Source: an uncultured Pirellula sp. (GTDB taxonomy: Bacteria > Planctomycetota > Planctomycetia > Pirellulales > Pirellulaceae). From it: a DNA stretch of 47,261 nucleotides. Below the pieces are notes generated by a model that had not been told where the DNA came from, did not search any database, and saw only the letters and a list, made by a program, of their open reading frames with translations. A program made the position numbers and the translations under genes. The stretch lies in NCBI GenBank assembly GCA_903930765.1, contig CAIYZV010000056.1, positions 1 through 47,261 of the forward strand, given 5' to 3'. Positions 1-46,128 of this stretch are shown here, one piece after another; within the stretch, counting starts at the first letter, position 1, and each line of letters starts with the position of its first letter.

Positions 1-54
1 CCGGTCACCGAATCTCTGCCGGTCACCGAATCTCTGCCAGTCACCGAATCTCTG
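1..54. repeat. 18-bp tandem repeat, 3 copies, in the kinase gene
   Basis: Unit CCGGTCACCGAATCTCTG at 1-18 and 19-36, with one mismatch at 37-54. It is in frame in the minus-strand kinase and encodes Gly-Arg-Asp-Ser-Val-Thr. It touches the window edge and may continue beyond it. Confidence 0.95.
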
Positions 55-2015
55 GCCGTGGTACTCGCTCCTCCAACGGCATTGGAGGACAGATCGAATG
101 TCCCTTTGGATCCAATATTCCGCACGACCGACGGAAGAGGCAGGCTACCTTGATGCTGCACGGTGATCGTGCATTCGTTCCAATCGAGGTGCGATCCTGA
201 GCCCGAACCGAACATCGACTGAGGCCGCGAATCGAGCATGGATGCATTCCAAATGAAATCCATACGATGGAACGAAACCTTGCCTCCATGGAGGGCGAAC
301 CATTCCGATTCACCTTCGTTGGATGATTTGATCGAGGATTCATCGAACACGATCCTGGCTCGGGTCCCGGGGGCGGCCTCAATTCGCACTTCTCTACCTT
401 TGCGCAAACCCGCCAAATCGATGGGCTTTCCAACCGACAGGACAGGTTCGGCAACGAGCAATCGACCGATCGAATCGTCATTGATGATTCGGCTGAACGC
501 CTCATCGATCGAGGTTGCAAAAAGATACGACTCGTCGGTATCGATTCCGGAGATAGTTCCGGGATTGCCAATGACAACCGTCTTATCGCGTGTTGCTTCG
601 CCAACGGGTTTGCTATCTTCCGTAGGATCACTCGCCGACCGCCCACTAGCTTCAATACCCTCGCTACCGGTGCGATTTCGAGGTTCTGTATTGCCTCGTA
701 GCTTTGCATCGGCAGAATTGGGATTGTCAATAACCAAGCTCGATGGATTGGACGCCGAAGCAACCACGAGATTAGACTCCGGGGATGCGTCCGCGAACTC
801 TACTTGAGGAATCGAGAAGATCGCGTTGAGTTGATTCGCGTTGTAGAGCCACATAGTGCTTAGTGCGATCACCAACAAACTGACCAGTGAAGGCATCGCC
901 GATTCCCACCATGGACGCTTGGACTGGCTCGACGCGAGAACTTCGTCATTAAAATCCTGACTCCATGACAACGAGTCGACCACCGCGAGCGTGCGCAGAT
1001 CATTGACCAAATCGTTGGGCGTTTGGTAGCGATCCTTGGGCTTTTTCGCCATCATCTTTCGAAGGATCTCAATCAGGGAATCACTGAGGTCGTTGCGAAA
1101 GAATCGAGGATCCTCGGGCATCTTGGTGCCATGCATGAGGAGCTTTTGCAATGCGGTTCCATCGGGAAACGGTGGTTGTCCAGTCAGGAGAAAGTACAGC
1201 GTGCATCCGAGTGAATAAATATCGCTTCGAACGTCGGCATCGCGAGGATCGTGGGCTTGCTCGGGCGAGATATAATCAAATGTTCCAAGAGTTACACCGC
1301 TGGCCGTCAAATCGCCCGTAGAGCGATCCAGTTCCGTTGTTCTGGCCAAGCCCATATCCACGAGCTTGGCTTTGCCATCGGTTCCGATCAAGATGTTCGA
1401 TGGTTTGATATCTCGGTGCACAACGCCGCGGTCGTGCGCGTGCTGCAACGCTTCGGCGACTTGGCAGATAAAACGGGTCGCATCATCGACGGTTAACAAG
1501 CCATGCTCGAGCACAAGCTGCCTGAGGTTTGTACCCTCGATAAACTCGAAGACGATATAACTCCATCGCTCGGTTTCCCCGACGTAGTAGACGCGAGCGA
1601 TGTTTGGATGGTCTAATTTGGCAGCGCTTTGGGCTTCCATGCGAAATCGCCGCATGGCATCTGCGCGCCGGTTAGAAATCGGAACGACTTTGATGGCGAC
1701 GATGCGGTCGAGTCGCTGGTCCCTGCCGCGAAAGACGGCTCCCATGCCGCCGACCCCAACCAAGGACTCGATGCGATAGTGGTCTAGGTTTTGACCAACC
1801 AGCGAATCCACCGAGTCGGGTGATGGAGTACTGCTCTGGGATGCTGGGAGGGCAAACGAAGCATCGACATTCTCAGGCTCGCCAGGAGTGATGCTCGATA
1901 CCGAGAGAAGCCCATCATGGCGAATCTCTGTCTTTTCCGGATCTTTGGAATGCAACACATGGAGATTGGAGTCATCTACCGTGTCGCGACCCAACGAAGG
2001 ATTGGAGTTCGCCAT
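1..2015 (-). CDS. Membrane-anchored Ser/Thr protein kinase, incomplete at window edge
   Basis: The frame is open from ATG at 2015 to the window edge, giving at least 671 codons with the C-terminus missing. Residues 1-75 are a polar leader. The kinase domain covers about 80-345: Gly-rich loop near 87-92 (GVGGMG), ATP-binding Lys109, catalytic loop HRD at 200-202 followed by IKPSN, DMG at 220-222 where most kinases have DFG, and SPE in place of APE. One transmembrane helix lies near 374-392, so the remaining 280 or more residues should be outside the cytoplasm. This layout is typical of planctomycete PknB-like receptor kinases. The visible C-terminal end is a run of a six-residue repeat, Gly-Arg-Asp-Ser-Val-Thr. 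The gene follows the 521-residue secreted protein by 26 bp, so the two are probably co-transcribed. The ligand and substrates cannot be told from sequence. Confidence 0.9.
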   Translation of the reverse strand, partial: MANSNPSLGRDTVDDSNLHVLHSKDPEKTEIRHDGLLSVSSITPGEPENVDASFALPASQSSTPSPDSVDSLVGQNLDHYRIESLVGVGGMGAVFRGRDQRLDRIVAIKVVPISNRRADAMRRFRMEAQSAAKLDHPNIARVYYVGETERWSYIVFEFIEGTNLRQLVLEHGLLTVDDATRFICQVAEALQHAHDRGVVHRDIKPSNILIGTDGKAKLVDMGLARTTELDRSTGDLTASGVTLGTFDYISPEQAHDPRDADVRSDIYSLGCTLYFLLTGQPPFPDGTALQKLLMHGTKMPEDPRFFRNDLSDSLIEILRKMMAKKPKDRYQTPNDLVNDLRTLAVVDSLSWSQDFNDEVLASSQSKRPWWESAMPSLVSLLVIALSTMWLYNANQLNAIFSIPQVEFADASPESNLVVASASNPSSLVIDNPNSADAKLRGNTEPRNRTGSEGIEASGRSASDPTEDSKPVGEATRDKTVVIGNPGTISGIDTDESYLFATSIDEAFSRIINDDSIGRLLVAEPVLSVGKPIDLAGLRKGREVRIEAAPGTRARIVFDESSIKSSNEGESEWFALHGGKVSFHRMDFIWNASMLDSRPQSMFGSGSGSHLDWNECTITVQHQGSLPLPSVVRNIGSKGTFDLSSNAVGGASTTARDSVTGRDSVTGRDSVT

Positions 2016-2041
2016 CAAAGTTCCGGTTAGCGGTCCCTATG

Positions 2042-3607
2042 CTACGGACTGCCGAAACCGTCTCCTTCTGTGGATTCCCCTTCCGTAGTTTCCGGTGGGG
2101 GAGGCTCCAGCAGTCCACTCGAGTCATCTTTAACAATGACTGAGAGGGCTTGTTGGAGATCGTAGATCGGTCGGCGAGTGTTCGTGACCAATTCGCTCAA
2201 ACCAGTGTTCTTATCGTTGTTCAATGATTGCTGGAGAGCCTCGATTTTGTTCAAGACCTCTTGGATCTTTCCCTTCTCCGTTTCAGGGAGGAGATTCATC
2301 AAACCACGGGTGGAGGTTTCGCTGGATTTCTTGCCAAAGCCATTGAGACCTACGTGGATTCGCTCCAAGCGTTGCTGCAAAATTCGACGGGCGTTTCGAA
2401 CTTCTTTGGGTTGATCTTCAAACGGATTTTTCGGCTTGGCTCCAGCACCGGCGGCACCCGGAGGTCCTCCGCCGTCATCACCACCGATCAGACCACCTCC
2501 TCCTGGCCCACCGAGTCCCGGAGGACCACCCCCGCGACCGCCGGGGCCACCCGATTTACCGCCCATCCCCATGTAACCACCAGCGGTGCTCGACGAGGTT
2601 TGACTGCAGCGTTTGTTCCATGACTCAAGGCTGGCTTGAACAAACTGCACGGCTCCTTTTTCCGCAGGCGCGATACCTTCGGGAGGCTGATCCTTCAAAT
2701 TCAACTGCCCCAGACTCCACATCGATTTTTCGACAAGCCATTCGGACTCGGTCTTCCCATCTTTGATCGCTGGCAGTACCAACGATAGCAAGACGGGTAA
2801 AGCTTGCTTGGCGGATTCACCTTTGCTGTTAGCGATGATCGTAAGATTCTCAATCATGAGTTCTTTGAGGTAAGAATCTTCTTCCGGGCCACGTGCTGTA
2901 GGTTTCTGAGCTGCGAGGAAAGCTTGGACGTTCGCGACGAATTTGACCCTCGCGCTCTCCAAAGTCGCTTCGTCCATCCCGGGCCATTGCCAATGCCGAG
3001 GCAAGTGACTCAGAGATGTCGCAACCATTCCGTCGTTTTCGGTAGGGGACAGCAAAGCGACGAGGATCTTCGTTCCTTCAGGATCCGCCAATCCGCCCGA
3101 CTGAGGGGTGGCCGCTTGTTTGTTCAAGCGAGCGGCCGCAATGGCGGCAATGATTCGCGCCGACGGATGGTAGGACTTCCCATCTTGGTCTTTCGCGATG
3201 AGTTCTTTGAGATTACGAACCACAACTCGATTGAACTCAGAGATCGATTCCTGCGAACCCTTCAGCTTTTTCTCAACGGTCTCGATGTCAAACATCAATT
3301 CGCTTCGAGCTCGATTCATCGATTCGGCATCGAGTTGGGTCATGCGAACGAAGAGGCACTCGCGGTAGTAGCTATCGAGCGCGCCGGCATCAAATTTTTC
3401 AGGAGTCAGCAAATCCTTTTTCTCGTTGGTCCGCTTGTCATTGCACCGCTCCGGATCAATCGGCTTGACCTTGTATTGGGGGGCAGCCGCAGCCGGCGCC
3501 GCCTCTTGGCCCAAAGCGGACGGCGCGAACACGGTTCCGAGCAAAATCGCAAAGGTCAACCGGGACCGAAAATTGGCGATCGGGTGAAGCGGGTGCTTGG
3601 ATGACAT
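2042..3607 (-). CDS. Secreted protein of unknown function with Gly-rich segment
   Basis: 521 residues. I do not recognise a family. Residues 1-33 look like a Sec signal peptide: a basic stretch, a hydrophobic core near 17-30, and Ala-Leu-Gly before a likely cut. Residues 45-335 are mostly helical, with several Leu/Ala-rich helices. Residues 343-390 are very rich in Gly and Pro and should be flexible. A second helical part (about 395-500) is followed by a Pro/Glu-rich acidic tail. It lies 26 bp upstream of the Ser/Thr kinase gene in the same direction, so a shared transcript and perhaps an envelope role linked to the kinase are possible; this is inference only. Confidence 0.8.
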   Translation of the reverse strand: MSSKHPLHPIANFRSRLTFAILLGTVFAPSALGQEAAPAAAAPQYKVKPIDPERCNDKRTNEKKDLLTPEKFDAGALDSYYRECLFVRMTQLDAESMNRARSELMFDIETVEKKLKGSQESISEFNRVVVRNLKELIAKDQDGKSYHPSARIIAAIAAARLNKQAATPQSGGLADPEGTKILVALLSPTENDGMVATSLSHLPRHWQWPGMDEATLESARVKFVANVQAFLAAQKPTARGPEEDSYLKELMIENLTIIANSKGESAKQALPVLLSLVLPAIKDGKTESEWLVEKSMWSLGQLNLKDQPPEGIAPAEKGAVQFVQASLESWNKRCSQTSSSTAGGYMGMGGKSGGPGGRGGGPPGLGGPGGGGLIGGDDGGGPPGAAGAGAKPKNPFEDQPKEVRNARRILQQRLERIHVGLNGFGKKSSETSTRGLMNLLPETEKGKIQEVLNKIEALQQSLNNDKNTGLSELVTNTRRPIYDLQQALSVIVKDDSSGLLEPPPPETTEGESTEGDGFGSP

Positions 3608-5621: not shown

Positions 5622-6010
5622 ACTTACTCCGGTCGCAGTTCACAGGCCGCGACGGTACCCTGCTCTCGCTCGCCCACGGGCTCAGGTCGAGCCGGACCGA
5701 ACATCGATCCGTTTAATCTAGGACTCAAAAACCTCCGTGGGATTGATGGCATTGAAGTTGCCAAGAATAGGGCATGAAGGATCGAGGTCACTTTGCCGAT
5801 TGCATCGGTTGTAGCGATTTCGACTCCCACTGATTCATTGCCGGAGGGTTCCTTGACAACGAGCCCAGCGAACCATAAATTTTGCGAATATGGAACCAAG
5901 TTTGGCGGTAATTCATAAACCGCCTAACACTCGACGCGGCGTGCTGCAACCGAACTGGGAAATGACGCAACAAGTCGCCGACAATGAGTTAAGTGACAAG
6001 GAGTTTAGTC
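5622..6010. other. Divergent intergenic region
   Basis: This gap separates the minus-strand GGDEF-like gene from the plus-strand BON gene. Apart from the doubtful small ORF at 5624-5899 I see no gene, repeat or clear hairpin. Promoters for both directions should lie here, but I cannot point to convincing -35/-10 pairs. Confidence 0.5.
5624..5899 (-). CDS. Possible small ORF upstream of the GGDEF-like gene
   Basis: 91 codons starting at TTG, unrecognised. Its TAA stop lies 2 nt before the start of the GGDEF-like gene, and its last codons form that gene's GGAG ribosome binding site, an arrangement often seen with translational coupling. Codon use is compatible with coding. However, there is no clear ribosome binding site at the TTG and no recognisable domain. 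It could equally be an untranslated leader. Confidence 0.25.
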   Translation of the reverse strand: MVPYSQNLWFAGLVVKEPSGNESVGVEIATTDAIGKVTSILHALFLATSMPSIPRRFLSPRLNGSMFGPARPEPVGEREQGTVAACELRPE

Positions 6011-6247: not shown

Positions 6248-6640
6248 CAGAGCCATTGTCGCGGTGTGAGTCTATTTGGTGATCTCGGTATCTCACCGCT
6301 CTCGGTATCTCACCGCTCTCGGTATCTCACCCAAGGTCTCGGGTGTTTCGATCCGCATGTGGCACGCGGACCTCATCATCGCATCGAGTTATCGCTGGCG
6401 AAATCCAACCATCTAACCGACGGACGATCTGCTTTCAGACCTCTTTCTAACTAGTTTGCTAGCGTTCTTTTCCACGACACCATTTCCATGATGCGATGGT
6501 CCTGAAGACGCTTCGTTCCTGTCTGGAGCTCCTTTCAGGATCCTTGCATGAAATTTTTTGGTCTATCAACGCCCAGGGATAATTTGATATCACCCGAACT
6601 TGGTGTCACTTTATTGGTCCAAGGCGAGGGTAATTAGGAA
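6248..6640. other. Intergenic region upstream of the DUF11 protein gene
   Basis: It holds a 17-bp tandem repeat (6284-6330). No convincing gene is present; a 62-codon ORF here has no recognisable content. The promoter of the following gene is presumably in the last 150 bp. Confidence 0.5.
6284..6330. repeat. 17-bp tandem repeat, 2.8 copies
   Basis: Unit CTCGGTATCTCACCGCT at 6284-6300 and 6301-6317, with a partial copy to 6330. The copies are identical. It is intergenic and the unit length is not a multiple of three. Confidence 0.95.
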
Positions 6641-9220
6641 ATGTCGCGATACGCATTCGTCGCCGCAGCCACTCTCTTCGCAGGCTTGCTGTTCGTTTTA
6701 GCAATGGCGGTCGCGCAGCGTGATGCCAGGGTCAATCACTCTGTTTCTCACGCAGAAGAGCCCGACTACGCCAAGCAATCGGTTGCCCCCATTTCGGTCG
6801 CTATGACGGCGATGAGGACAGCAGAGCTTGGAAACGCGTCGCAAGAAAATCTCTCAGAGCCCAGCCCGCTGCATCTGAAAATCCCTCAATACTCTGGAAG
6901 TACTAACTCGTACGAAGACGAGGCTAACTCCCCCGAGGCTAACACCACGGTTCTCGCGTCGTACAACGGACCCGCGGTACCGTTGACATTGGACGGTCCA
7001 GCGAACACCTCCGAACCTCCGCGGTTCGATGCCTCGCGGATCATCAGTCGACGTTCGACCGAGATGGAGTCCACTCCGAGCCCGCAAGGGCGAAGTGGCG
7101 ATCTCGATTCGCCAACCAACAACTCCAACCCAAAGCCCATGGTGAAAGCTGGAGTCAAACCCGGTGTAAAGCCGAGCATAAAACCGATAAGCACGGCTGA
7201 CACACGCGTCGCTCCTCCACCGCTTCCCACGAACAATTCAAATCTCGACAACTCGAATCTCGTGGGCCTTGCGGCACCATCGGTACTGGTACCCAACCAG
7301 TCTACTTCTATGGGCTCTGCAAGCCCAACACTGGGTGCAACCTCGACTACGAATGCTCCGAGCGATCGTGCATTGGAGAGCCATGAAAGCTCTCGAGATC
7401 GTCCGACCGCGACCCTAGGCTCGCCCTTACCCTTGCCCATCGGTACGTTGCCCCTCCCTGCCAGCGGACCAAATTCTGCGACGCTTCCAACAGCCACCTT
7501 CCCATCGCTTGATTCAGGATCACTCCCAGATTTGACGTCACTGGCAGCCCCAGTGACCACGGACGCAAACACGCCGTCCACGGATCGAGGCGTGTCCATG
7601 AACTCGACCAACAGTCCACCACCCAGAACGCTTCCGACCAGTGCACCACCAACCGCCAATTTCCCGCCGGCCAATTTCCCACAGGCCAGTTTCCCACAGG
7701 CCAGTTTCCCACCGGCCAATTTCCCACCGGCCAGTTTCCCACCGGCCAACGCGAGCTCCGCTTCCAGCGGGATCCCAAACACCAATGATGCCCGACGCAA
7801 CGGAGGCTGGTCGTTGAGTAGCGGCGCTCCAGGCGCTCGGCAGTTCGATGGTTCGCAGAATCCAAGCCTTGAAATTCACAAAAAGGCGCCCGCCGAAGTC
7901 CAAGTTGGTGTGCCGGCTACGTTTCATGCCATCGTTCGCAATGTCGGCAATTCAACCGCGTTTGATGTTCAAGTCATCGATGCGATTCCAAAAGGTGCCA
8001 AACTGGTTCGAACGTCTCCGGAAGCAGAACGGACCGGTACCGATGGACTCCAGTGGAATCTGGGTGAATTGGCAGCAGGCCAGGAAGCCAGCATCAGTAT
8101 GGAGCTGGTACCCGAGACCGAAGGGGAACTCGGTTCGGTTGCGAGTGTCAAATTCGCAGCACAAGCATCGGTGAGAACCATGAGTACTCAACCCCGTTTG
8201 TCGGTGAAGCAAACAGCACCATCGGAATTGCTCGGTGGGGGATCCGTTACGGTTCTCATCGATGTCGCCAATGTCGGAACAGGAACCGCGAAAGGGGTTA
8301 AACTGGAAGAGGATGTCCCCAGTTTGTTTCGACACGCAACAGGAGCAACCAAACTCGGTATGCCCGTCGGCGACCTAGCACCGGGGGAATCGCTTCGATT
8401 TGAAATTGAGCTGACCGCATTGGAAGCCGGAAAAGCATCAAACATGATCCGCGCTACGTCCGAAAATGCGGCGGCCAGTGAATCTTCGTTCCCGATTGAG
8501 GTCAAAGCGCCGAAACTGCAATTGCAATTGGTCGGTCCACGCATCCGCTATCTCGAGCGCCCTGCGCCGTACGAGGCGGTGATCGAGAATGTTGGTACCG
8601 CGGTATGCCGAGATCTCTACATTGTGACGCGTCTGCCTCGCGGCATGAATTTTATCAGCGCCAACAATGAAGGAACCTACATACCCGACCAACATGCGGT
8701 CGCATGGAACCTCGCTGAGCTCGCCGCGGGTACCAAAGTAAAAACCGAGCTCACCCTACTCCCGGTTGAGGAAGGACGGTTCTCGCTCCTGCTTACAACC
8801 GAGGGTGAAGGCGTGCGAGCCTCGCCGGCCGAACGTGAGGTCCACGTCGAAGGACAGAGCGAACTGACCTTCAACATCGACGACGACAACGACCCCATCG
8901 AAACACAAGGCATCACGACTTACACCGTTCAAGTGACCAACATCGGGACGCGCCCGGATACCGACGTGCAGTTAATGGTTGATCTTCCCGAAGGGACTTC
9001 GCTTGAACAGATCAGTTCTCCGTTGAAGTATCAAACCAACGGACGAAGTATCGCATTCGCCTCGCTCGCATCGCTTCCGTCGAAAGATCAGCTCAATGTC
9101 AAGATAAGTGTCCGGCACGCGAGAGAGGGGACCCAAGTCCTTCGGGCCTCGATCCGAAGCAAACTGCGAGCTGTCCCGGTCATCAAAGAAGAAAGCACCC
9201 AAGTCTACGTCGACCGCTAA
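6641..9220 (+). CDS. Large secreted DUF11-repeat surface protein
   Basis: 859 residues. Residues 1-26 form a signal peptide or membrane anchor. Residues 30-405 are low-complexity, rich in Ser, Pro, Asn and Thr, and include six five-residue repeats of the type Phe-Pro-Pro-Ala-Asn/Ser at about 340-370. Residues 408-859 hold about four tandem immunoglobulin-like DUF11/CARDB domains of roughly 110 residues, each with the typical pattern 'N.G...A..V.v.d.lP.g..' followed by 'w.lg.La.G'. Such proteins are common on planctomycete cell surfaces and are thought to be structural or adhesive. The likely layout is an anchor, a long flexible stalk and a row of Ig-like domains. No sorting signal is seen at the C-terminus. 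The gene appears monocistronic. Confidence 0.88.
7656..7750. repeat. 15-bp tandem repeat, 6 copies, in the DUF11 gene
   Basis: Unit CCAATTTCCCACCGG with one- or two-base variants, in six contiguous copies from 7656 to 7745 plus a partial copy. It is in frame and encodes Phe-Pro-Pro/Gln-Ala-Asn/Ser repeats in the Pro-rich stalk. Confidence 0.95.
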
Positions 9221-11996: not shown

Positions 11997-12043
11997 CTCG
12001 AGAGACGCTACAGTCGAAGCGGACGGGATCCTCAGATCGGCCG

Positions 12044-12120
12044 ATTAGTATGGGCAGAATATAGTACGGGCGGAATAGTATGGGCAGAATATAGTACGGG
12101 CGGAATAGTATGGGCAGAAT
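12044..12120. repeat. 30-bp tandem repeat, about 2.5 copies
   Basis: Two identical 30-bp units at 12051-12080 and 12081-12110 and a partial third to 12120, all beginning TGGGCAGAAT. It is located between two convergent genes. Confidence 0.95.
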
Positions 12121-14461: not shown

Positions 14462-14550
14462 GGAACCATCCAACCAATTGAAATAAAATGGATTGCGAAC
14501 TTTTGGAACATCGATGAAAGACCGGCCTTCGTCACCGTATGCTTACTAAA

Positions 14551-16203: not shown

Positions 16204-16210
16204 TACTGTT

Positions 16211-16393
16211 TCACTTCCCTGTGATCCACTGGATTTGAACCGAATTTGACACTGGTTTGTTCCTCACCGATCGCTGCGGCTCCGCCGCTTCATCGGTTCG
16301 AGAAAAATCCAGGCCGAAAATCACCACATCGTCCCTGATGCTGGCAATTCCCGAGGTGCCGTTAAGAGAAAACTCAATGGACGCACACCCCAC
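16211..16393 (-). CDS. Possible small ORF between secretin and CpaB genes
   Basis: 60 codons from a GTG, unrecognised. It fills the gap between cpaB and the secretin gene and ends 7 nt before the secretin start. Codon use resembles neighbouring genes, but there is no signal peptide, prepilin motif or clear ribosome binding site, so it may be untranslated spacer. Confidence 0.2.
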   Translation of the reverse strand: MGCASIEFSLNGTSGIASIRDDVVIFGLDFSRTDEAAEPQRSVRNKPVSNSVQIQWITGK

Positions 16394-16425
16394 AAAGCTC
16401 GATCGACCGTTTCAATAGGTAACCT

Positions 16426-19340: not shown

Positions 19341-19378
19341 AGAGGGGCTGAGATTTCTCTCGCCCCTCTCTGTTCTTT
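19341..19378 (-). terminator. Terminator between convergent genes, better for htrA
   Basis: The arms AGAGGGGC (19341-19348) and GCCCCTCT (19362-19369) are a perfect 8-bp stem with a 13-nt loop. On the minus strand it is followed by a T5 run, fitting the end of htrA; on the plus strand the T content is weaker. Confidence 0.75.
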
Positions 19379-19425
19379 CGCTCAACGATGGTGGCAGCGT
19401 TCTTTCGCTCAACGATGGTGGCAGC
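19372..19425. repeat. 27-bp direct tandem repeat, 2 copies
   Basis: Two identical 27-bp copies at 19372-19398 and 19399-19425, each starting GTTCTTTCGCTC. The repeat overlaps the tail of the terminator between convergent genes. Confidence 0.95.
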
Positions 19426-21001: not shown

Positions 21002-21433
21002 AGTTCTTCACTCCAATACTTTCCTGAAGTTCGGTACCCACGGAGTTGGTTTAAACCTCCGATCGCTTTCCACCCAAGCCATCACTTCTGAGCAATAGTC
21101 GCTAAGGATACGAAAATCGCCCAGGAGAACGTCTCATTGGCAACCACTCGGCCCTGTAAACTCATCGAGGTAAACTCATCGAGTGCCAGTTTGACGTACG
21201 CTTGGAAAGCGGTTTTGGATCAATCTACAAATTTCGTGCCAATCCGAATTTTTCATGCGACTAGGTTTCGATGAAAGGCTCGTAACCGCAGTTTCTGGCA
21301 CTTGGCAACACTCACAGCTTCCTAGCCAAGGAACGCCCAACATCCGAGCGAGCGCACTGTTGGATTGTCGCTCGCCGGCCGAAGTCCCCTTCACGACTCA
21401 ATCAATTGCATCGCTAAACAACCGCGGAGAACA

Positions 21434-21517: not shown

Positions 21518-21545
21518 AAAGGCACGCGAAAATGGAGCGTGCCAA

Positions 21546-24685: not shown

Positions 24686-24727
24686 CCCTTGGTTAAGTGA
24701 CCCGTGGTTAAGTGATCCGTGGTTAAG
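24683..24727. repeat. 15-bp tandem repeat, 3 copies, spanning two stop codons
   Basis: Unit TGACCCGTGGTTAAG with single variants at 24683-24697, 24698-24712 and 24713-24727. The first copy begins with the TGA stop of the plus-strand gene; the last copy contains the TAA stop of the minus-strand thioesterase gene. Confidence 0.95.
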
Positions 24728-25127
24728 TAACACTCGTGCAGCTACATGTCGAAAATGCGATCGAACGACCTCTTGAATCGGTGATCTCGCATTCGACGAA
24801 ACCGACGCGCAGTCCTCGCTGCCGCACATGCGCTTTAGCGGTCAAGCGATGCGTTCGCACCGGACGCATGTATTGGATCTGCAAATCGATCGTTGAGAAG
24901 TCTTGACCGTCATCCAACATCCGGCCAAAGGCTATTCCCATCGCCGCATCCGCCAACGCCGCCAATACCCCACCATGAACTCGCCCCATGGGATTGTGCA
25001 GTCTCTCATCGACATCGAGATGCACAACCGCCAAACCGAGTTGCCGATCCTCGTCGGTCGCCGGTTCCACTTGGAATCCGATCAATCGAGAGATGGGAGC
25101 TTCTGCAAAACGATCAGGACGACTCAT
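24723..25127 (-). CDS. PaaI-type hot-dog thioesterase
   Basis: 134 residues, one hot-dog domain. The PaaI/YdiI-like signature HNPMGRVHGGVLAALADAAMG is seen around residues 43-63, with the His-Gly-Gly and the Asp on the central helix that activates water. DLQIQYMRPVR follows as the next conserved strand. It probably hydrolyses an acyl-CoA or aryl-CoA thioester in the cytoplasm; the substrate is unknown. It converges with the DHPS-like gene, with no gap beyond the shared repeat. Confidence 0.9.
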   Translation of the reverse strand: MSRPDRFAEAPISRLIGFQVEPATDEDRQLGLAVVHLDVDERLHNPMGRVHGGVLAALADAAMGIAFGRMLDDGQDFSTIDLQIQYMRPVRTHRLTAKAHVRQRGLRVGFVECEITDSRGRSIAFSTCSCTSVT

Positions 25128-25507
25128 AGAACCCTATAAAATATGCGATGTGCGGAATGAATGTGAACGTCCGATCATGGAACTCGCCCCACGATACAAC
25201 TCGTGGAATACACCCAACTCGTGGGATACACCAAACTCGTGGAATAACTACCGGACCGACTTGCAACTTTTGATGCTTTCAAAAGTTTCGACCGTCAACG
25301 GGCGGCGCATTGTAACCGTTCGCCAAGCCGTCGGGGCCGAATTGGTCCGATGGATCCTTCGTCCTATGGAGACGTCGCTAAATTCGCAACTCGCGGCGGA
25401 TCTTCACTGCGAGCAATTCCGGTTTCGGCTACAATCAAGCTCTCAGCCGATAACGATGGTGACCTCCATCCTGCCCCATTTACCCCTGCCCCAATCATCG
25501 ATTTCCG
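25128..25507. other. Intergenic region upstream of the DUF1549 gene
   Basis: About 380 bp between divergent genes. It holds an 18-bp tandem repeat (25197-25247). A plus-strand ORF crosses it, but I recognise no protein feature and regard it as non-coding. Confidence 0.5.
25197..25247. repeat. 18-bp tandem repeat, 2.8 copies
   Basis: The core AACTCGTGGAATACACC recurs with 18-bp period from 25198, 25216 and 25234, with one- or two-base differences. Confidence 0.9.
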
Positions 25508-28198
25508 ATGGCAACACCTCCTGCACGCCGATCGTTTTCATGCGATCACACACAGATCTGTGCTGCCCGCTTGGGGTTGATCTTCATGAGTTTGATTTGG
25601 TGGTTAGGTGGGAATGCGCACGCCGACCCAAACGATTCCTCGTTACCCGCCCCGCACCTGCGGATCCTGCCGAGCGAACTCGTTGCTACTCCCCAATATC
25701 CGGCTCTGTTTTCAATCCAATACTGCAACGCCGATGGAACCATTGTCGATATCACCCGTTCCGAGGAAGTGACGATCGAGGTTCATGACACGACCATCGC
25801 CCGTCCAGCCCCCCCAAAAATTAGTGCCATCCAACCGGGCACCACGAACCTTACGATTCGATATCGCAATCTTGAGACCAAAGCTACATTCCTCTCCCAA
25901 CCCGACGCTCCCTCCACGTTTTCTCGAGAAGTGATGTCGGTGTTGACCCGCTCCGGTTGCAATCAAGGCACCTGCCATGGAAACCTGCACGGCAAAGGTG
26001 GATTTCGCTTGAGCTTGCGCGGCGATGATCCGGATTTCGATCATTACCGGCTCACACGAGAATACGGACAGCGTCGCATCGATCCGTGGGAGCCCGAGCA
26101 AAGTCTCTTGCTCCGGAAAGCCACCTCCCAATTAGCCCATCAAGGTGGTGCTCGATTTCACGAATCATCCCCCGAATTTGAGATCCTGCGAACATGGATC
26201 GCGGTTGGAGCACCCGCCTCGAAATCCCCCGAACTGATTTCGATCGAAGTTGTTCCCAAACAAATCCTGGTGTCTGGAAGCCAGCGCAATGCACAGATTG
26301 CCGTGTTGGCCCGATTCCACGATGGCTCCGTGCGAGATGTCACACGCTGGTCTCGAATTGAGCCCAGCACCCCTACCGGGATCTCGGTGGATGAACTCGG
26401 TTATGTCACTGCCACCAACAGCCTGGATGTGAGTTTAGGGGTTACTTACCTATCGGGTAGAACCGCTGCACGCATCGTCTTTCTCGAGGATTCGAAAACG
26501 ACCGCGCAGCAAGGCGACGGATCGCGTGCTTCCGCCGTGGATGCACATCCCATCGCGATGAATCCAATCGATGTGATTGTTCATCGTCAATGTGAGCAAC
26601 TGAAAATCACTCCTCAACCCAGAGCCGATGACTGGACGCTGATTCGAAGGCTGTTCCTGGTAACAGTAGGTCGCCTCCCGACAGCCGACGAATCCAACGC
26701 ATTCGCGCACGAAACCGACCAGGAAAAAGTCAATCACTGGGTAGATCGGCTTCTCGCAGATCCCGATTTCGATTTCATGTGGGCCATGCGCTGGAGCGAT
26801 CTGATCCGAAACGAAGAGAAAGTAATGAGCCCCAAAGGCACAGCACTGCTGCACGACTGGCTTCGAGCACAATCTGCGAGCGATCGACCAATCCGCGATT
26901 GGGTCGCTGAACTCCTGTCCAGTATCGGCAGTACCTACGACAACCCGCCCGCTTCCTTCCATCGAACGCATCGCGACCCGTTTGTCGCTGCCGAGTCCTC
27001 CACCCAAGTCTTCCTCGGCGTTCGCATGCAATGCGCGAAATGCCACAACCATCCCTTCGATGTCTGGAAACAAGACGACTACTACGGAGTCGCCGCGTAC
27101 TTCACGACCATCGATCGAAAACAAATCGATAACAAACCCAAGGATGAGTTGGACAAACACATCATCACCGGTGATGAAATCATCTCGTTGCTCGATCGAT
27201 CTCCCGAGATTCAACATCCAGGTCGATCTCGCAAAGTATCGCCGCAACCTTTGGCTGCCACACGCAACAAAAACATCCTCGCGACCACATCGGATACTCC
27301 CCTAACTGAGCCAGCCCTCACGGAGCCAGCCCTCACGTCGACCGTCCTGAACGACTTCGCGCAATGGATGACGCATGAGAACCATCAGTTCGATAAAAAC
27401 ATCGCGAATCGAATCTGGTCTCAGTATTTTAGCCGCGGCATCGTTGACCCCCCCGACGATTTTCGCGATTCCAACCCGCCGAGCAATCCGGAACTGCTAG
27501 CCTTCCTCGCCGAACAACTCAAGCAATCGAACCACTCGTTGAAAACTCTTTCCCGCTGGATCCTGACCAGTGAAACATTTGCCCGAAGTTCCGATGGGAA
27601 CAGCGCTCAAGTGACGTCTCTCGACCCATCGATCTATTTCGCGTCCTACCCCATCCATCGATTGTCCGCCGAAGTCCTGCTCGATGCGATCGCCGATGCC
27701 ACCGGGGTCCACTCCGAGTGGCCGAACGATTCTCCTGAAGCCGTTCGTAACACGCGAGCAATACGTTTGCCGGGTGTGCCCAAGAAGCGGGGGTTCCTAA
27801 CCACCTTCGGAAAACCAGACCGATTGTTGGTGTGTGAATGCGAACGCTCTAGCCAAGTCTCACTCGGTCAGTCGTTGGCCTTGGTCAATGGCAAAGAAGT
27901 ACGCGATAAGTTGACCGATGCCAAAAACCGAATCGATGCCTTGATCCGTTCTGAACGGAGCAACCCAGCCCTCGTCGAAGAATTGTTTTTGGCAACCCTT
28001 TGCCGCCCACCCTCTCCGAAGGAAATGGAACGGGCTATCCAATTGCTTGATTCCGCGTCGGATAAACCGCAGTCCATCGAAGACGCAGCCCTCGCGATCA
28101 CCCAAAACTTGACCGCTCCGCTCTACCAAAAGCGTCGCGCGCTAGAGGATCTGCTGTGGGCTTTGCTCAACAGCAAAGAGTTTGTCATGCTCCGCTGA
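25508..28198 (+). CDS. Planctomycete secreted DUF1549/DUF1553 protein with c-type heme-like motifs
   Basis: 896 residues. The N-terminus to about 39 looks like a long signal peptide ending Ala-His-Ala. A Big2-like Ig domain (50-125) is followed by a short cytochrome-like segment with C151-x4-C156-H157 and GGFRLSLRGDDPDFDHYRLTREYGQRRIDP. A second Ig-like part covers 240-320. DUF1549 (about 350-560) contains the canonical heme-type motif Cys-Ala-Lys-Cys-His at 509-513 followed by NHPFDVW. DUF1553 (about 620-890) contains NRIWSQYFSRGIVDPPDDFR. This family is abundant in planctomycetes and usually precedes a DUF1501 gene, as here with 33 bp spacing. The function is unknown; an extracytoplasmic redox role is inferred. 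Confidence 0.9.
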   Translation: MATPPARRSFSCDHTQICAARLGLIFMSLIWWLGGNAHADPNDSSLPAPHLRILPSELVATPQYPALFSIQYCNADGTIVDITRSEEVTIEVHDTTIARPAPPKISAIQPGTTNLTIRYRNLETKATFLSQPDAPSTFSREVMSVLTRSGCNQGTCHGNLHGKGGFRLSLRGDDPDFDHYRLTREYGQRRIDPWEPEQSLLLRKATSQLAHQGGARFHESSPEFEILRTWIAVGAPASKSPELISIEVVPKQILVSGSQRNAQIAVLARFHDGSVRDVTRWSRIEPSTPTGISVDELGYVTATNSLDVSLGVTYLSGRTAARIVFLEDSKTTAQQGDGSRASAVDAHPIAMNPIDVIVHRQCEQLKITPQPRADDWTLIRRLFLVTVGRLPTADESNAFAHETDQEKVNHWVDRLLADPDFDFMWAMRWSDLIRNEEKVMSPKGTALLHDWLRAQSASDRPIRDWVAELLSSIGSTYDNPPASFHRTHRDPFVAAESSTQVFLGVRMQCAKCHNHPFDVWKQDDYYGVAAYFTTIDRKQIDNKPKDELDKHIITGDEIISLLDRSPEIQHPGRSRKVSPQPLAATRNKNILATTSDTPLTEPALTEPALTSTVLNDFAQWMTHENHQFDKNIANRIWSQYFSRGIVDPPDDFRDSNPPSNPELLAFLAEQLKQSNHSLKTLSRWILTSETFARSSDGNSAQVTSLDPSIYFASYPIHRLSAEVLLDAIADATGVHSEWPNDSPEAVRNTRAIRLPGVPKKRGFLTTFGKPDRLLVCECERSSQVSLGQSLALVNGKEVRDKLTDAKNRIDALIRSERSNPALVEELFLATLCRPPSPKEMERAIQLLDSASDKPQSIEDAALAITQNLTAPLYQKRRALEDLLWALLNSKEFVMLR
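27308..27337. repeat. 15-bp in-frame tandem duplication
   Basis: GAGCCAGCCCTCACG at 27308-27322 and 27323-27337, identical. It encodes Glu-Pro-Ala-Leu-Thr twice in a linker between DUF1549 and DUF1553. Confidence 0.92.
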
Positions 28199-28231
28199 TC
28201 CCTTTTGCAAACACTCGACGAAGGTTAACCG

Positions 28232-32452: not shown

Positions 32453-32480
32453 AGTCCTGTCACCTTAGTCCTGTCACCTT
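32453..32480. repeat. 14-bp tandem duplication
   Basis: AGTCCTGTCACCTT at 32453-32466 and 32467-32480, identical. It is in the divergent gap upstream of the RDD-kinase gene. Confidence 0.92.
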
Positions 32481-32490
32481 AGTACACCAC

Positions 32491-32529
32491 CCGGATTCCC
32501 CCCGAAAGCTCCGGATTCCCACGAAAGCT
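32491..32529. repeat. 20/19-bp tandem duplication
   Basis: CCGGATTCCCCCCGAAAGCT followed by CCGGATTCCCACGAAAGCT. It ends 5 bp before the start of the D-threonine-aldolase-like gene, so the repeat is in its 5' leader. Confidence 0.9.
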
Positions 32530-33696: not shown

Positions 33697-33736
33697 CCAG
33701 CCCCACCGCTATGAAACCAGCCCCACCGCTATGAAA
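33697..33736. repeat. 20-bp tandem duplication
   Basis: CCAGCCCCACCGCTATGAAA at 33697-33716 and 33717-33736, identical. It is intergenic. Confidence 0.95.
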
Positions 33737-36920: not shown

Positions 36921-36950
36921 CGGAGTACTTGGAACGAGGTACTTGGAAGG
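36921..36950. repeat. 15-bp imperfect direct repeat, 2 copies
   Basis: GTACTTGGAA recurs at 36924 and 36939 within two 15-bp units. It lies in the short gap between the histidine kinase and thioesterase genes. Confidence 0.8.
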
Positions 36951-36967
36951 AGCACTAGGCGGTCCCC

Positions 36968-37507
36968 ATGATTTCTGAGCACGAAACAACGATTCGAGTC
37001 CACTACCATGAAGTCGATGGTCAAGGGCGAGTTCATAACAGCAATTACCTCAGCTACTTTGAACGAGGCCGCGTGGAAATGCTCCGCGCATCGGGGATCT
37101 CGTACAAAGAACTCGAGAGTACCGGATTGATGCTCGTCGTCCGGATGATGCACGTCGATTTTCATGCTCCCGCCGTGTTCGATGATTTGCTTGTCCTAAA
37201 GACGAGGCTCGGGTATTGCCACGGCGCCCGAATCGAACACCATTATCGACTGGTCAGGCCTCGCGCTGCGTCACGCGATGAAGCGGCACTCGAGGCAACG
37301 AAAACTCCGTTAACAGGGGCCAGCCAACAGGAATCCAACGGGGGAGATCTAAACGGGGGAGATCTAAACGGGGGAGATCTAAACGGTGGAGATCTCATCG
37401 TGTCTGGTCGCAGTGAGATCGGTTGTGTGGATGCGACCGGACGCGTCCGACGTTTGCCTGCATTCCTGCAATTGAATCTCCGAGGGGATCGCGACGGGGA
37501 TTCCTAG
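36968..37507 (+). CDS. YbgC/FcbC-type acyl-CoA thioesterase with repeat insertion
   Basis: 179 residues. The hot-dog domain starts with VHYHEVDGQGRVHNSNYLSYFERGRVEML; the Asp in EVDGQG matches the catalytic Asp of YbgC and 4-hydroxybenzoyl-CoA thioesterase. MMHVDFHAPAVFDDLLVLKTRL gives the next strands. Between two later strands, at about residues 97-140, lies a long non-conserved insertion ending in four copies of Asn-Gly-Gly-Asp-Leu. The domain then resumes (SEIGCVDATGRVRRLPAFL). The insertion is in a loop and should not break the fold. It probably hydrolyses short or aromatic acyl-CoAs in the cytoplasm. It follows the histidine kinase by 78 bp. Confidence 0.9.
   Translation: MISEHETTIRVHYHEVDGQGRVHNSNYLSYFERGRVEMLRASGISYKELESTGLMLVVRMMHVDFHAPAVFDDLLVLKTRLGYCHGARIEHHYRLVRPRAASRDEAALEATKTPLTGASQQESNGGDLNGGDLNGGDLNGGDLIVSGRSEIGCVDATGRVRRLPAFLQLNLRGDRDGDS
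37337..37396. repeat. 15-bp tandem repeat, 4 copies, in the thioesterase gene
   Basis: Unit AACGGGGGAGATCTA in three identical copies and a fourth with two changes. It is in frame and encodes Asn-Gly-Gly-Asp-Leu four times. Confidence 0.97.
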
Positions 37508-38897: not shown

Positions 38898-38925
38898 GTA
38901 TACGGCTGATAGTATACGGCTGATG
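38898..38925. repeat. 14-bp tandem duplication
   Basis: GTATACGGCTGATA followed by GTATACGGCTGATG, just after the terminator and before the end of fhcA on the other strand. Confidence 0.92.
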
Positions 38926-38990: not shown

Positions 38991-40739
38991 TTAAACCAGC
39001 CTGTGCACTCGATTGGCTTCGATGAGGCGGCCTTCATCCGTCAACTCCTCGCCTCGAACCATCACCATATCCGGCGAATATCCATAACGCTGATGCCACA
39101 TCGCTCGATTCGCTGCGGAACGATACCAATCCGCACCTCGACCGCTATCGGCCATCCCCGCGACGATCGTCGATTTGACGGAATCCGCCAGGAACTCTCC
39201 ATTCCTGTAAACCAGTATCCCGCGCCGGAACACCATCTCCGGATCGCAAAACATCGACTCCGCATTGGACTCGTCACGGTAAACCACGACGTCCGCGATC
39301 GCTCCATCGCTCAGCACACCTCGGTTTTCCAAACCCAATGCACGAGCCGGTCCCATCCGCGTCATCGCTGCGATCTCGGCCAATGTGTATTCTCGTCGTA
39401 GACTCGGCAACGGACTCGTGCTCTTCACATCGGGATGCAAACGATCGAAGATCGACATTCGGAAGTCATAGTCCATCAATAGTCGAATCAAATGAGGATA
39501 GCCGGTGAACGGGCCTCCATTGGGATGATCTGTGGTCAAAAAGACGCGCATGGGATCGGTGATTCGCAAAAACAACTCCAACCCGATCGACCACTGGAGC
39601 GAATGAACATACTGACTTTCGCGGTATCGGAACGGTACGATTCCACAGCCCGCTTGGCACTCGAGATCTTGAAAGATCACCTTCCGCGGCAATGCCAACG
39701 ACCGATGCTCAAACTGATGCATCGTGTCCGCCGATAACGTCACCGTCTGTCCGAAGAGCACTTGGCCGACGTCGATGGTCAGTGAAGGTGTACGATTGAC
39801 TCGATCCGCTAACGCGGACGCAGCGGAACTGTAGCCATGCGGCCCTTCTTTACCATAGCAATGATACTGCGCATGCGTTACATGAAGCCGCCGTCCCTCG
39901 ACCGCATCGATCGTGGCCAATGTAGACTCAATGTTCCCCGCCACCCCGAGATTGCTGCAATGCACATGCAAGGGATGTGCCAACTGAAGTTCCTCGATCG
40001 CAATCGCGAGCGCTCGCAGGATCTGTCGAGGCGTCACGCCGAAATGGAGGTGCTTCTCGTCGACATCGAGCTTTCTCTGATTGAATTTGAACGCATCGAT
40101 CCCACCCGCATTGACCACTTTCACCGCACACGCAGCATGCGCGGTCAGCATCCAAGCGACATAGTCGGTGATCATCGATTGTGGTACACCCGCTTGAAGC
40201 CATTCGAGCAGCATCCGGTCGTTCCCCAAGACGACATAGCCTCCGGTATCCAACCACGGAGTGTCTCGCATCTCAGCATGCGATTGCCGGGCATTGGCCG
40301 GAAGCATCGCCGGCTCAAAACAGGCGGTGTAACCCATCTGCAAATACCTTCGACCAGTTTCCCAAGTGTTGGGTACCGGACAACTCAGTGGCCCCAACCA
40401 CGGCTTGTCGGCTCGCATCGGCTCTGTCGCTCTCGGTCTCTCTGGCATCAGCAGCCTCGCGAGATTGACCTTGCCGCCACCGATGTGGGTGTGCAAATCA
40501 ATCGCGCCTGCCATCACCGTACGACCTGGCAACGCATATTCGGCATCGATCTTCTTGCCATCGGGTAACACCCGCGAGAGAACACCATCGATCATGTAAA
40601 GGTCTGCATTCTCAACGCTCTTTACAACACCATCAGCCATTTTAAAACCGCCGGACGTTTTCAAACCGCCGGCCGCACTAAAACCGCCGGCCGCACTAAA
40701 ACCATCGACGATACGGACGCCACGTAATTTGGTAATCAT
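38991..40739 (-). CDS. fhcA: Formyltransferase/hydrolase complex subunit A (formylmethanofuran dehydrogenase A-like)
   Basis: 582 residues from ATG 40739, overlapping the fhcB stop in ATGA. It is an amidohydrolase fold with His83 and His85 (DLHTHIGGGK), a likely carboxylated Lys207 (VKVVNAGG), His258/His260 (HVHCSN), THAQYHCYG and Asp404 (TTDHPNGGPF). This matches FwdA/FhcA. In bacteria the Fhc complex hydrolyses formyl groups passed from H4MPT via methanofuran, giving formate. Unusually, residues 13-36 carry repeats of six residues (Gly-Phe-Ser-Ala-Ala-Gly type) inserted in the N-terminal beta domain. FhcC and FhcD are not in this window. Confidence 0.93.
   Translation of the reverse strand: MITKLRGVRIVDGFSAAGGFSAAGGLKTSGGFKMADGVVKSVENADLYMIDGVLSRVLPDGKKIDAEYALPGRTVMAGAIDLHTHIGGGKVNLARLLMPERPRATEPMRADKPWLGPLSCPVPNTWETGRRYLQMGYTACFEPAMLPANARQSHAEMRDTPWLDTGGYVVLGNDRMLLEWLQAGVPQSMITDYVAWMLTAHAACAVKVVNAGGIDAFKFNQRKLDVDEKHLHFGVTPRQILRALAIAIEELQLAHPLHVHCSNLGVAGNIESTLATIDAVEGRRLHVTHAQYHCYGKEGPHGYSSAASALADRVNRTPSLTIDVGQVLFGQTVTLSADTMHQFEHRSLALPRKVIFQDLECQAGCGIVPFRYRESQYVHSLQWSIGLELFLRITDPMRVFLTTDHPNGGPFTGYPHLIRLLMDYDFRMSIFDRLHPDVKSTSPLPSLRREYTLAEIAAMTRMGPARALGLENRGVLSDGAIADVVVYRDESNAESMFCDPEMVFRRGILVYRNGEFLADSVKSTIVAGMADSGRGADWYRSAANRAMWHQRYGYSPDMVMVRGEELTDEGRLIEANRVHRLV
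40645..40707. repeat. 18-bp tandem repeat, 3-4 copies, in fhcA
   Basis: Unit AAACCGCCGGCCGCACTA at 40663-40680 and 40681-40698, identical, with a diverged copy at 40645-40662 and a partial one after. It is in frame in fhcA. Confidence 0.93.
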
Positions 40740-42016: not shown

Positions 42017-42040
42017 GAGGGGATCTTGCGAGTTTCTACA

Positions 42041-42091
42041 GGCTGACCGATCACTGTACGGCTGACCGATCGCTGTACGGCTGACCGATCA
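42041..42091. repeat. 19-bp tandem repeat, 2.7 copies
   Basis: GGCTGACCGATCACTGTAC at 42041-42059, with one change at 42060-42078 and a partial copy to 42091. It lies 25 bp upstream of the fhcB start. Confidence 0.95.
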
Positions 42092-44518: not shown

Positions 44519-44857
44519 GTGAATCTCCGGCAAATGTGTTCGAGAGGGAGGAGGATGGGGAAAGGATCACAGCCCGATCCTGACGACTCATGTTCTACCA
44601 ATTCGCACCACGTTTTCCAGGTCCCGGACACGCAGTCGACGAAACTCCATTACAGATTTGCCGCGTAATCAGCCACAGAATCAATCGCCCCGAACGGTTC
44701 CTCGAATCTTTTTTTCTAATGCTTTCCAATCCGATACGAGTGCGATTCATCGCTAGGACAGGGCCATCGCTAGGCCCAGGGCCATCGCTAGGACAGCGCC
44801 GAACCGGGAATGGCGAAGCGAAGGGGCGGACGGAAATGGACGAGCCGTTGGAACTGT
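44519..44857. other. Intergenic region between Gfo/Idh/MocA and PEP-CTERM genes
   Basis: 340 bp. It holds the ribosome binding site of the oxidoreductase gene and a 17-18-bp tandem repeat (44751-44796). No gene is recognised. Confidence 0.5.
44751..44796. repeat. 17/18-bp tandem repeat, 2.7 copies
   Basis: CGCTAGGACAGGGCCAT at 44751-44767, a one-base-longer variant at 44768-44785 and a partial copy to 44796. Confidence 0.92.
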
Positions 44858-45580: not shown

Positions 45581-45596
45581 ACTTAGCGACTCCAAA

Positions 45597-45639
45597 GTAC
45601 GGTGACTTAATGTACGGCGACTTAATGTACGGTGACTTC
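45597..45639. repeat. 15-bp tandem repeat, 2.9 copies
   Basis: GTACGGTGACTTAAT at 45597-45611, one change at 45612-45626, and 45627-45639. It starts a few bases upstream of the ribosome binding site of the PEP-CTERM gene. Confidence 0.95.
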
Positions 45640-46030: not shown

Positions 46031-46066
46031 CAAATTCGTGGGTATCGGGCAATTCGTGGGTGCGGG
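46031..46066. repeat. 18/17-bp imperfect duplication
   Basis: CAAATTCGTGGGTATCGGG followed by CAATTCGTGGGTGCGGG, directly before the 17-bp triple repeat. Confidence 0.8.
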
Positions 46067-46077
46067 ATTGCACGGAT

Positions 46078-46128
46078 ATTCCAGACAGACATCTATTCCG
46101 GACAGACATCTATTCCGGACAGGCATCG
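46078..46128. repeat. 17-bp tandem repeat, 3 copies, upstream of crcB
   Basis: ATTCCGGACAGACATCT at 46095-46111, with close variants at 46078-46094 and 46112-46128. Confidence 0.95.

What the first reader, a model, noticed from the sequence alone, without database searches (positions are those of the whole stretch)
1..46128. More than twenty unrelated micro-tandem repeats scattered over 46 kb
Short tandem arrays occur about every 2 kb: units of mostly 14-30 bp, 2-6 copies, near-identical within an array but with no shared sequence between arrays (for example at 6284, 7656, 12044, 19372, 24683, 25197, 32453, 33697, 37337, 40645, 42041, 44751, 45597 and 46078). Inside genes the units are 15 or 18 bp. 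Between genes they are 14, 17, 19, 20, 27 or 30 bp. The lack of a common unit argues against a mobile element. It points to a general local duplication process, perhaps replication slippage or a repair pathway, with selection removing frame-breaking events. I do not recall a description of this in planctomycetes.
Basis: partly seen in the sequence, partly recalled or inferred. Interest (0 to 1): 0.75.

Follow-up and report, generated by a model that had tools for sequence, protein, structure and literature searches.

The report
Short homology-free tandem duplications in planctomycetes
This planctomycete and its close relatives keep making fresh 13-17 base tandem copies of random bits of their DNA, and the edges of the new copies carry a mark that looks like the cutting preference of a DNA-unwinding enzyme, topoisomerase I.

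Summary
All 14 quoted arrays exist; the window holds 12 exact tandem duplications with units of at least 10 bp, eight shuffles none. Units share no family. The trait is lineage-bound: 11.7 per 100 kb in the sampled rest of the host genome, 10.0 in a sister at 94% identity, 1.2-1.5 in 77 loci mostly of other planctomycetes, 0 in 150 kb of E. coli. Against the sister, 39 of 77 array rows differ by whole copies; several duplications are single-copy there. Unit length peaks at 13-17 bp; genes mostly hold units divisible by 3.

The founding step looks unlike ordinary slippage: 33 of 72 isolated two-copy duplications have no junction homology. There C sits 4 nt 5' of the breakpoint at 37 of 66 ends (family-wise p 0.0002); 31 of 33 have it at one end or more, 25 at exactly one. 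It recurs in 69 further duplications (59 of 138 ends, p 0.00024). C at -4 is the published cleavage rule of bacterial topoisomerase I. I propose one topoisomerase I cut, 3'-end extension by about 15 nt, rejoining; later copies by slippage. The lineage-specific rate is unexplained.

The parts
1..54 (.). 18-bp unit x3.0, inside a kinase-like gene (3-2018 -)
   Evidence: gene
5980..6009 (.). 15-bp unit x2.0, imperfect, between genes
6283..6331 (.). 17-bp unit x2.9, between genes; the sister genome differs here in a complex way
7233..7262 (.). 15-bp unit x2.0, imperfect, in frame in gene 6641-9220
7655..7749 (.). 15-bp unit x6.3, in frame in the DUF11-repeat protein gene 6641-9220; 15 bp more than in the sister
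   Evidence: classes the exact core as complex
12039..12120 (.). 30-bp unit x2.7, between convergent genes; 60 bp (two copies) more than in the sister
19372..19425 (.). 27-bp exact duplication, no junction homology, single copy in the sister; C at -4 on the left end
21156..21183 (.). 14-bp exact duplication, no junction homology, same length in the sister; C at -4 on the left end
24682..24728 (.). 15-bp unit x3.1, mostly between genes
25197..25246 (.). 18-bp unit x2.8, between genes; the sister differs here in a complex way (net 11 bp)
27300..27337 (.). 15-bp unit x2.5 in frame in the PSCyt2/PSD1 gene; the sister has 60 bp (four copies) more
32453..32483 (.). 14-bp unit x2.2, between divergent genes; 10 bp longer than in the sister, not a whole unit
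32491..32529 (.). 19-bp unit x2.0, imperfect, between genes
33697..33736 (.). 20-bp exact duplication, no junction homology, single copy in the sister; G at +4 on the right end (C at -4 of the other strand)
36925..36952 (.). 14-bp unit x2.0, near-exact, between genes; also in the sister
37122..37157 (.). 18-bp unit x1.9, imperfect, in gene 36968-37507
37337..37395 (.). 15-bp unit x3.9 in frame in a thioesterase-like gene (36968-37507); 45 bp (three copies) more than in the sister
38898..38924 (.). 14-bp unit x1.9, between genes
40643..40703 (.). 18-bp unit x3.4 in frame in an amidohydrolase-like gene; one copy more than in the sister
42041..42091 (.). 19-bp unit x2.7, between genes; one copy more than in the sister
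44748..44800 (.). 17-bp unit x3.1, between genes; the sister has 51 bp (three copies) more
45597..45638 (.). 15-bp unit x2.8, between genes
46077..46127 (.). 17-bp unit x3.0, between genes; one copy more than in the sister

Best explanation
These are scars of a recurrent mutational process in a clade of one Pirellulaceae-like genus, in two steps. Step 1 (founding): a random stretch of about 13-17 bp (mostly within 11-30) is copied once in tandem without homology at its ends. I propose that bacterial topoisomerase I (TopA, type IA) cuts one strand as 5'-CNNN^ in locally melted DNA, holding the 5' end on its tyrosine and leaving a free 3'-OH; a polymerase extends that 3' end along the exposed complementary strand for about one and a half turns; TopA then rejoins its 5' end to the new 3' end, leaving a loop that the next replication fixes as a duplication. 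This needs no double-strand break and no Ku. Step 2: once two copies exist, ordinary slippage or recombination adds and removes whole copies; in genes selection keeps mainly units divisible by 3. Shown here: the duplications, the lineage-specific density, the size peak, the lack of homology in 33 of 72 isolated cases, the C(-4) preference, its one-sidedness in the discovery set, whole-copy changes against the sister, the frame effect. Inferred: TopA as the cutter, 3'-end extension, rejoining by the same enzyme. Not explained: why this clade does it more often than others that also have TopA.
For: Size ruler: exact arrays outside genes in G000 (window included) have units 13:4, 14:7, 15:7, 16:8, 17:7 of 44. 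Isolated gaps against the sister: outside genes 61 of 1 bp, 11 of 2-10 bp, 18 of 11-20 bp; inside genes 15-bp gaps (14, of which 13 tandem) outnumber 3-bp gaps (6). No homology: 33 of 72 isolated two-copy duplications have zero extension; a wholly homology-free process predicts 40.5. Motif: C at -4, folded over both ends, 37 of 66 against 27% background, binomial p 7e-7, family-wise p 0.0002 over 80 cells, none of 5,000 shifted control sets reaching it. By group: G000 with window 18 of 34, G018 7 of 14, nine other genus members pooled 12 of 18. Further duplications, one per place and none at a discovery place: 59 of 138 ends, p 0.00024, again the most deviant of 80 cells (z 3.85, next 1.91). 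One end: 0/1/2 marked ends = 2/25/6; a one-cut model has log-likelihood -23.2, two independent cuts -27.9, no motif -40.2. All 6 sister-checked zero-homology duplications have the mark at one end or more (five of the six are in the discovery set). Published rule: C at -4 (CXXX^) for E. coli and M. tuberculosis topoisomerase I (PMC2702276, passages); a properly placed C strictly required for cleavage by E. coli TopoI (PMC9352719, passages). G000 has one TopA with Toprim and Topoisom_bac domains and four Toprim_C repeats. No Ku match in any of the 37 genomes of the family searched.
Against: TopA does not follow the trait: one PF01131 match in 50 of 60 relatives, two in 8 (several are pieces of one gene), none in 2, and E. 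coli, whose TopoI obeys the same rule, shows 0 exact duplications in 150 kb: TopA alone does not explain the rate. The discovery set is 33 only, and the motif was found by scanning positions. In the further set the one-cut and two-cut models fit equally (-69.98, -69.94), and 22 of 69 duplications lack the mark at both ends. The 6 zero-homology duplications that fail the isolation filter show no mark (3 of 12). Isolated duplications with 1-6 bp homology show no significant mark (0/1/2 = 2/17/9, expected 3.4/17.6/7.0). C on the other strand inside the unit is also mildly raised (27 of 66), which the simple model does not predict. Isolated duplications with 3 bp or more of homology (23 of 72) exceed the homology-free expectation of about 4, so part of the founding events may be slippage. 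Polarity against G007 could not be settled (flanks too diverged).
Confidence: 0.48

Rival explanations
1. Replication slippage between short direct repeats makes both the founding duplication and the later copies.
For: 23 of 72 isolated two-copy duplications have 3 bp or more of junction homology; some sister-checked cases have a clear short repeat at both ends in the single-copy state, such as the 12-bp case in L122 and the 13-bp case in L143. Copy changes of existing arrays are in whole units in 39 of 77 rows.
Against: 33 of 72 have none, incl. the 27-bp and 20-bp cases in the window. Slippage does not predict a peak at 13-17 bp with few 2-10 bp gaps, nor a base preference outside the unit.
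Confidence: 0.22
2. Two nicks on opposite strands about 15 bp apart (damage repair or a sequence-preferring nickase) give 5' overhangs that are filled in and joined by end joining.
For: Fill-in and joining of a staggered break is the model given for homology-free duplications at yeast Top2 cuts (review PMC11477040, passages). The mark reads 5'-CNNN^ on the strand that would be cut at each end. In the further set two cuts fit as well as one.
Against: No Ku match in the 37 family genomes searched. In the discovery set the mark is mostly on one end only (25 of 33), and two independent marked cuts fit worse.
Confidence: 0.14
3. A sequence-preferring cutter other than topoisomerase I (for example type IA topoisomerase III, a relaxase-like or HUH enzyme) makes the single cut.
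For: Only C(-4) is strong; A at -5 and G at -3 are mild extras.
Against: The CNNN^ spacing is the published rule of type IA topoisomerase I, while E. coli topoisomerase III prefers CTT^ (both in PMC2702276, passages). One PF01131 gene only in G000. Relaxases and HUH enzymes were not searched for.
Confidence: 0.1
4. Footprints of a transposon that left behind its target-site duplication.
For: Homology-free duplication of a fixed-size target would look similar.
Against: Lengths vary (isolated set 11-36); marks in the discovery set are one-sided rather than symmetric; no shared unit between the window's arrays. Transposases were not searched for.
Confidence: 0.03
5. Assembly artefact of metagenome-assembled genomes.
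For: G018 is an uncultured Pirellula MAG and G000, in 527 contigs, looks like one. The one complete genome of the genus sampled, G005, has a low density (3 in 123 kb).
Against: Separate assemblies of the clade agree in density; copies within many arrays carry substitutions; sister arrays differ by whole units with intact flanks; MAG loci of other planctomycetes do not show it; a shared junction base is not expected of assembly errors.
Confidence: 0.03

Closest known systems
Bacterial minisatellites / VNTR loci and prokaryote satellites (Subirana & Messeguer 2019, PMC6749651)
   Same: Tandem units of more than 10 bp scattered over the genome, many in genes with units divisible by 3; R. baltica is listed with 29 satellites, 4.06 per Mb (abstract and passages read).
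   Different: Most arrays here have 2-3 copies, below that paper's cut of four; narrow size peak; fresh homology-free founding events with a junction base. Arrays of >=3.8 copies reach about 27 per Mb here by TRF (a different method).
Topoisomerase II-induced de novo duplications in yeast and human cells (review PMC11477040, passages read)
   Same: Homology-free duplication next to a topoisomerase cut, length set by the geometry of the cut.
   Different: There mostly 2-4 nt, type II enzyme, needs non-homologous end joining; here about 15 bp, type IA-like mark, no Ku found in the family.
Phage T4 topoisomerase-linked frameshifts (Masurekar, Kreuzer & Ripley 1991; title seen in a reference list; content recalled)
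   Same: As I recall it, 3' ends at a topoisomerase cut are extended or trimmed and rejoined.
   Different: Type II enzyme, one to a few bases, acridine-induced (title and recall).
Short duplications in flap-nuclease mutants (yeast rad27, E. coli polA; recalled)
   Same: Tandem duplications of tens of bases.
   Different: As recalled, these end in short direct repeats; here G000 keeps the PolA 5' nuclease domain in a 998-residue frame.

Membership tests
Bacterial minisatellite / VNTR loci | Head-to-tail units of about 10 bp or more | tested here: met
Bacterial minisatellite / VNTR loci | Copy number differs between related genomes | tested here: met
   39 of 77 array rows differ by whole units between G000 and G018; 13 same, 10 complex, 15 with poor flanks (arrays present in both genomes give two rows)
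Bacterial minisatellite / VNTR loci | Copy number differs within one population | not testable with these tools
   no reads, no second strain of the species
Slippage between direct repeats (as the founding mechanism) | Short homology at both ends of the unit in the single-copy state | tested here: not met
   33 of 72 isolated duplications have none; 23 of 72 have 3 bp or more
Repetitive mobile or REP-like family | Shared unit sequence at many loci | tested here: not met
   23 units of the window, 253 pairs
Topoisomerase-linked duplication | Duplication boundary at the enzyme's preferred cut site | tested here: met
   C(-4): 37 of 66 ends, family-wise p 0.0002; further set 59 of 138; the preference itself from PMC2702276 and PMC9352719, not measured for this enzyme
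Topoisomerase-linked duplication | Physical cutting by the enzyme at those sites | not testable with these tools
   needs the enzyme or in-vivo mapping
Type II topoisomerase / NHEJ de novo duplications | Length 2-4 nt | tested here: not met
   peak 13-17 bp
Type II topoisomerase / NHEJ de novo duplications | Non-homologous end joining (Ku) present | tested here: not met
   Ku in 0 of 37 family genomes; 9 of 60 searched have it, all outside the family

The most novel reading that the evidence does not exclude
Type IA topoisomerase I is a mutator: a single TopA cut followed by limited 3'-end extension and rejoining inserts a tandem copy of about 15 bp, with no double-strand break and no end joining, and in one planctomycete clade this is the main source of indels longer than a few bases and the seed of its minisatellites.
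Probability: 0.38. Interest if true: 0.86.

Novelty: new variant of a known kind. Interest (0 to 1): 0.7.

Why it matters
How minisatellites are born, as opposed to how they grow, is rarely visible. Here sister genomes at 94% identity show births with exact edges, a size ruler and a base preference that points to a named, near-universal enzyme. If right, it links DNA supercoiling to a specific insertion signature in bacteria, gives a sequence test that can be run on any set of close genomes, and makes a misbehaving topoisomerase I readable from mutation spectra.

Tried and rejected
PolA flap nuclease loss: PF02739 found in all 27 genus genomes incl. G000; the printed alignment was cut, and its visible part shows the conserved VGDSVDNVPG stretch for G018, not for G000. 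Catalytic residues were not checked one by one. Mismatch repair loss: MutS1 over the cut-off in G000, G018 and G007; MutL was not searched. Ku-dependent joining: no match in the family. Extra TopA copy: one PF01131 match in G000. SbcD loss: over the cut-off in G000, G018, G007 and G006 only, 4 of 27, while dense genomes such as G013 and G019 have weak matches, so no simple link with density. RNase HI loss: PF00075 matches in 27 of 27, five of them (G016, G026, G011, G003, G015) with a weak one only. RecA, RecJ and other nucleases were not searched. Outgroup polarity with G007: flanks too diverged. GC of the unit (0.513) against flanks (0.537): no clear difference.

Rows dropped: duplications at locus ends, units that are themselves short runs, duplications with the same unit met twice, and for the motif test those whose flanks keep the period (148 in all, 121 two-copy, 72 isolated, 33 with zero homology). 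The 6 zero-homology ones that failed the isolation filter are reported under evidence against. One contig of the host read N throughout and counted as zero bases.

Corrected on the way: the low-complexity filter also removed all units under 10 bp; mended. The three replicate sets (66 of 156, p 0.00016) were not fully independent: they held second copies of the same places, two of them sister versions of discovery duplications. One search keeps one per place: 78 became 69 and the result 59 of 138, p 0.00024. Densities held some overlapping stretches; one search gives merged values, almost the same.


Full report
What is there. The window is G000:C56:1-47261 of a 5.74 Mb, 527-contig genome. Its proteins are planctomycete-like: PSCyt2/PSD1, DUF1501, DUF1559, and the nearest named record is an uncultured Pirellula MAG. 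Exact duplications with units of 10 bp or more number 12; eight order-3 Markov shuffles gave none, and one order-4 shuffle of the 1.07 Mb G000 plus G018 set gave one, of 11 bp. The arrays share no unit.

Lineage. With one counter (unit 10-60 bp, run at least 12 and at least one unit; overlaps merged) there are 12 in 47 kb of the window, 54 in 462 kb of the rest of G000, 55 in 551 kb of its sister G018 and 6 in 104 kb of G007 (window). A set of 77 loci found by protein similarity, most labelled as planctomycetes of other groups, has 15 in 1.27 Mb, or 19 with a slightly looser counter that finds 0 in 150 kb of E. coli K-12. On an rpoB tree of 20 genus members the clade with G000 (9 genomes) has 140 in about 1,230 kb; without G000 and G018 it still has 18 in about 157 kb. 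The other 11 have 12 in about 404 kb (sums). Members off the tree: G007 6 in 104 kb, G006 1 in 26, G004 2 in 7, G026 0 in 23, G011 0 in 20, G015 0 in 9 kb. Twenty kilobases per genome is thin, and G023, G020 and G014 in the second group are not empty. The trait is strongest in one clade and weaker around it.

Freshness. G018 is colinear with the window at 94% identity; about 350 kb of such pairs were aligned. Of 77 array rows, 39 differ by whole units (within 2 bases), 13 are equal, 10 are complex and 15 have poor flanks. Several are clean one-to-two events: 27 bp at 19372 and 20 bp at 33697 in the window, 16 bp in L145 and L157. Isolated gaps show an unusual spectrum: outside genes 61 of 1 bp, 11 of 2-10 bp, 18 of 11-20 bp; inside genes 15-bp gaps (14) are commoner than 3-bp gaps (6), and 13 of the 14 are tandem. 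Exact arrays in G000 genes have units divisible by 3 in 19 of 22, outside genes in 12 of 44; density is 5 per 100 kb in genes and 56 outside (own gene prediction with 84% coding).

Two classes of event. Of 72 isolated two-copy duplications, 33 have no base of homology at the junction, 6 have one, 10 have two, 23 have three or more; chance alone would give 40.5, 20.2, 7.6 and about 4. So a homology-free class is joined by a smaller class with homology, which may include slippage and the remains of longer arrays. Unit sizes in the first class are 12-27 with 25 of 33 at 13-17.

The junction mark. In the 33 homology-free cases the base four places 5' of the junction, read towards the unit and folded over both ends, is C at 37 of 66 ends (chi-square 30; the next cell has 11). 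Against 5,000 sets of shifted positions with the same unit lengths, no set reached this value anywhere in 20 positions and 4 bases (p 0.0002). By group it is 18 of 34 in G000 with the window, 7 of 14 in G018 and 12 of 18 in nine other genus members pooled. Further duplications (near-exact ones in the same sequences, exact and near-exact ones in other loci), reduced to one per place and none at a discovery place, give 59 of 138 ends, p 0.00024, and the same cell is again the most deviant (z 3.85, next 1.91). By set: 33 of 82 (p 0.006), 4 of 6, and 22 of 50 (p 0.017), the last one largely from loci outside the clade. In the discovery set 25 of 33 carry the mark at one end only, 6 at both, 2 at none, which fits one marked cut with a random other end (log-likelihood -23.2) better than two marked cuts (-27.9). 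The further set (22 none, 35 one, 12 both) does not separate the two models.

Interpretation. C at -4 of the cut is the rule reported for E. coli and M. tuberculosis topoisomerase I, and as a preference for reverse gyrases (PMC2702276, passages), and a properly placed C is called strictly required for cleavage by E. coli TopoI (PMC9352719, passages). A type IA enzyme cuts one strand, keeps the 5' end and leaves a 3'-OH (established knowledge, recalled). Extension of that end over the exposed partner strand and rejoining would give a tandem copy of the stretch 3' of the cut, homology-free, marked at one end, with a length set by the melted stretch. This works without Ku, of which no match was found in 37 family genomes. 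The extension and rejoining steps are inference. For type II enzymes, duplications at cut sites are described in yeast and human cells (review PMC11477040, passages).

What does not fit. TopA is ordinary in domain make-up here and present in genomes without the trait; a second factor must set the rate. I tested by presence or absence the PolA nuclease domain, Ku, MutS1, SbcD and RNase HI and found no match with density. A mild excess of C on the opposite strand inside the unit (27 of 66) is unexplained, as is the lack of a mark in the 6 non-isolated cases. Duplications with 1-6 bp of homology carry no significant mark. Gain was not separated from loss with an outgroup.

Literature. Ten searches were made. 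The one hit for tandem repeat, planctomycetes and minisatellite together was PMC6749651 (abstract and passages read), which lists R. baltica at 4.06 satellites per Mb. In the listings seen (10 of 20 papers, 10 of 96, 12 of 95) and in the passages of the three topoisomerase papers opened I saw no report of type IA topoisomerase-linked duplications in bacteria. The library lacks most subscription papers, so this is weak evidence of absence.

Noticed in passing
window 13223-17583: Tad/Flp-type pilus genes on the minus strand: TadZ-like ATPase, secretin, RcpC/CpaB.
   Followed up: no
window 25508-29656: Neighbouring PSCyt2/PSD1 and DUF1501 genes; a 15-bp in-frame array in each varies in length between the sisters.
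   Followed up: partly
window 21434-21520: G-rich array of 7-bp type units (GGGGAAT, AATGGAA) between genes; differs from the sister by a net 65 bp in a complex way.
   Followed up: no
genus-wide search: SbcD scores over the cut-off in only 4 of 27 genus genomes (G000, G018, G007, G006); the rest have weak or no matches.
   Followed up: no
order-wide search: No MutS1 match in G038 and G048, both listed as 99% complete.
   Followed up: no
relatives search: In G031 the PolA 5' nuclease domain is found as two separate pieces in short open frames.
   Followed up: no
relatives search: Ku is found in 9 of 60 relatives, all outside the window's family.
   Followed up: partly
loci L036-L110: Near-exact duplications in planctomycete loci outside the genus also tend to carry C at -4 (the set of 25, which mixes such loci with other genus and family members, has 22 of 50 ends), hinting that the process is wider than the clade.
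   Followed up: partly
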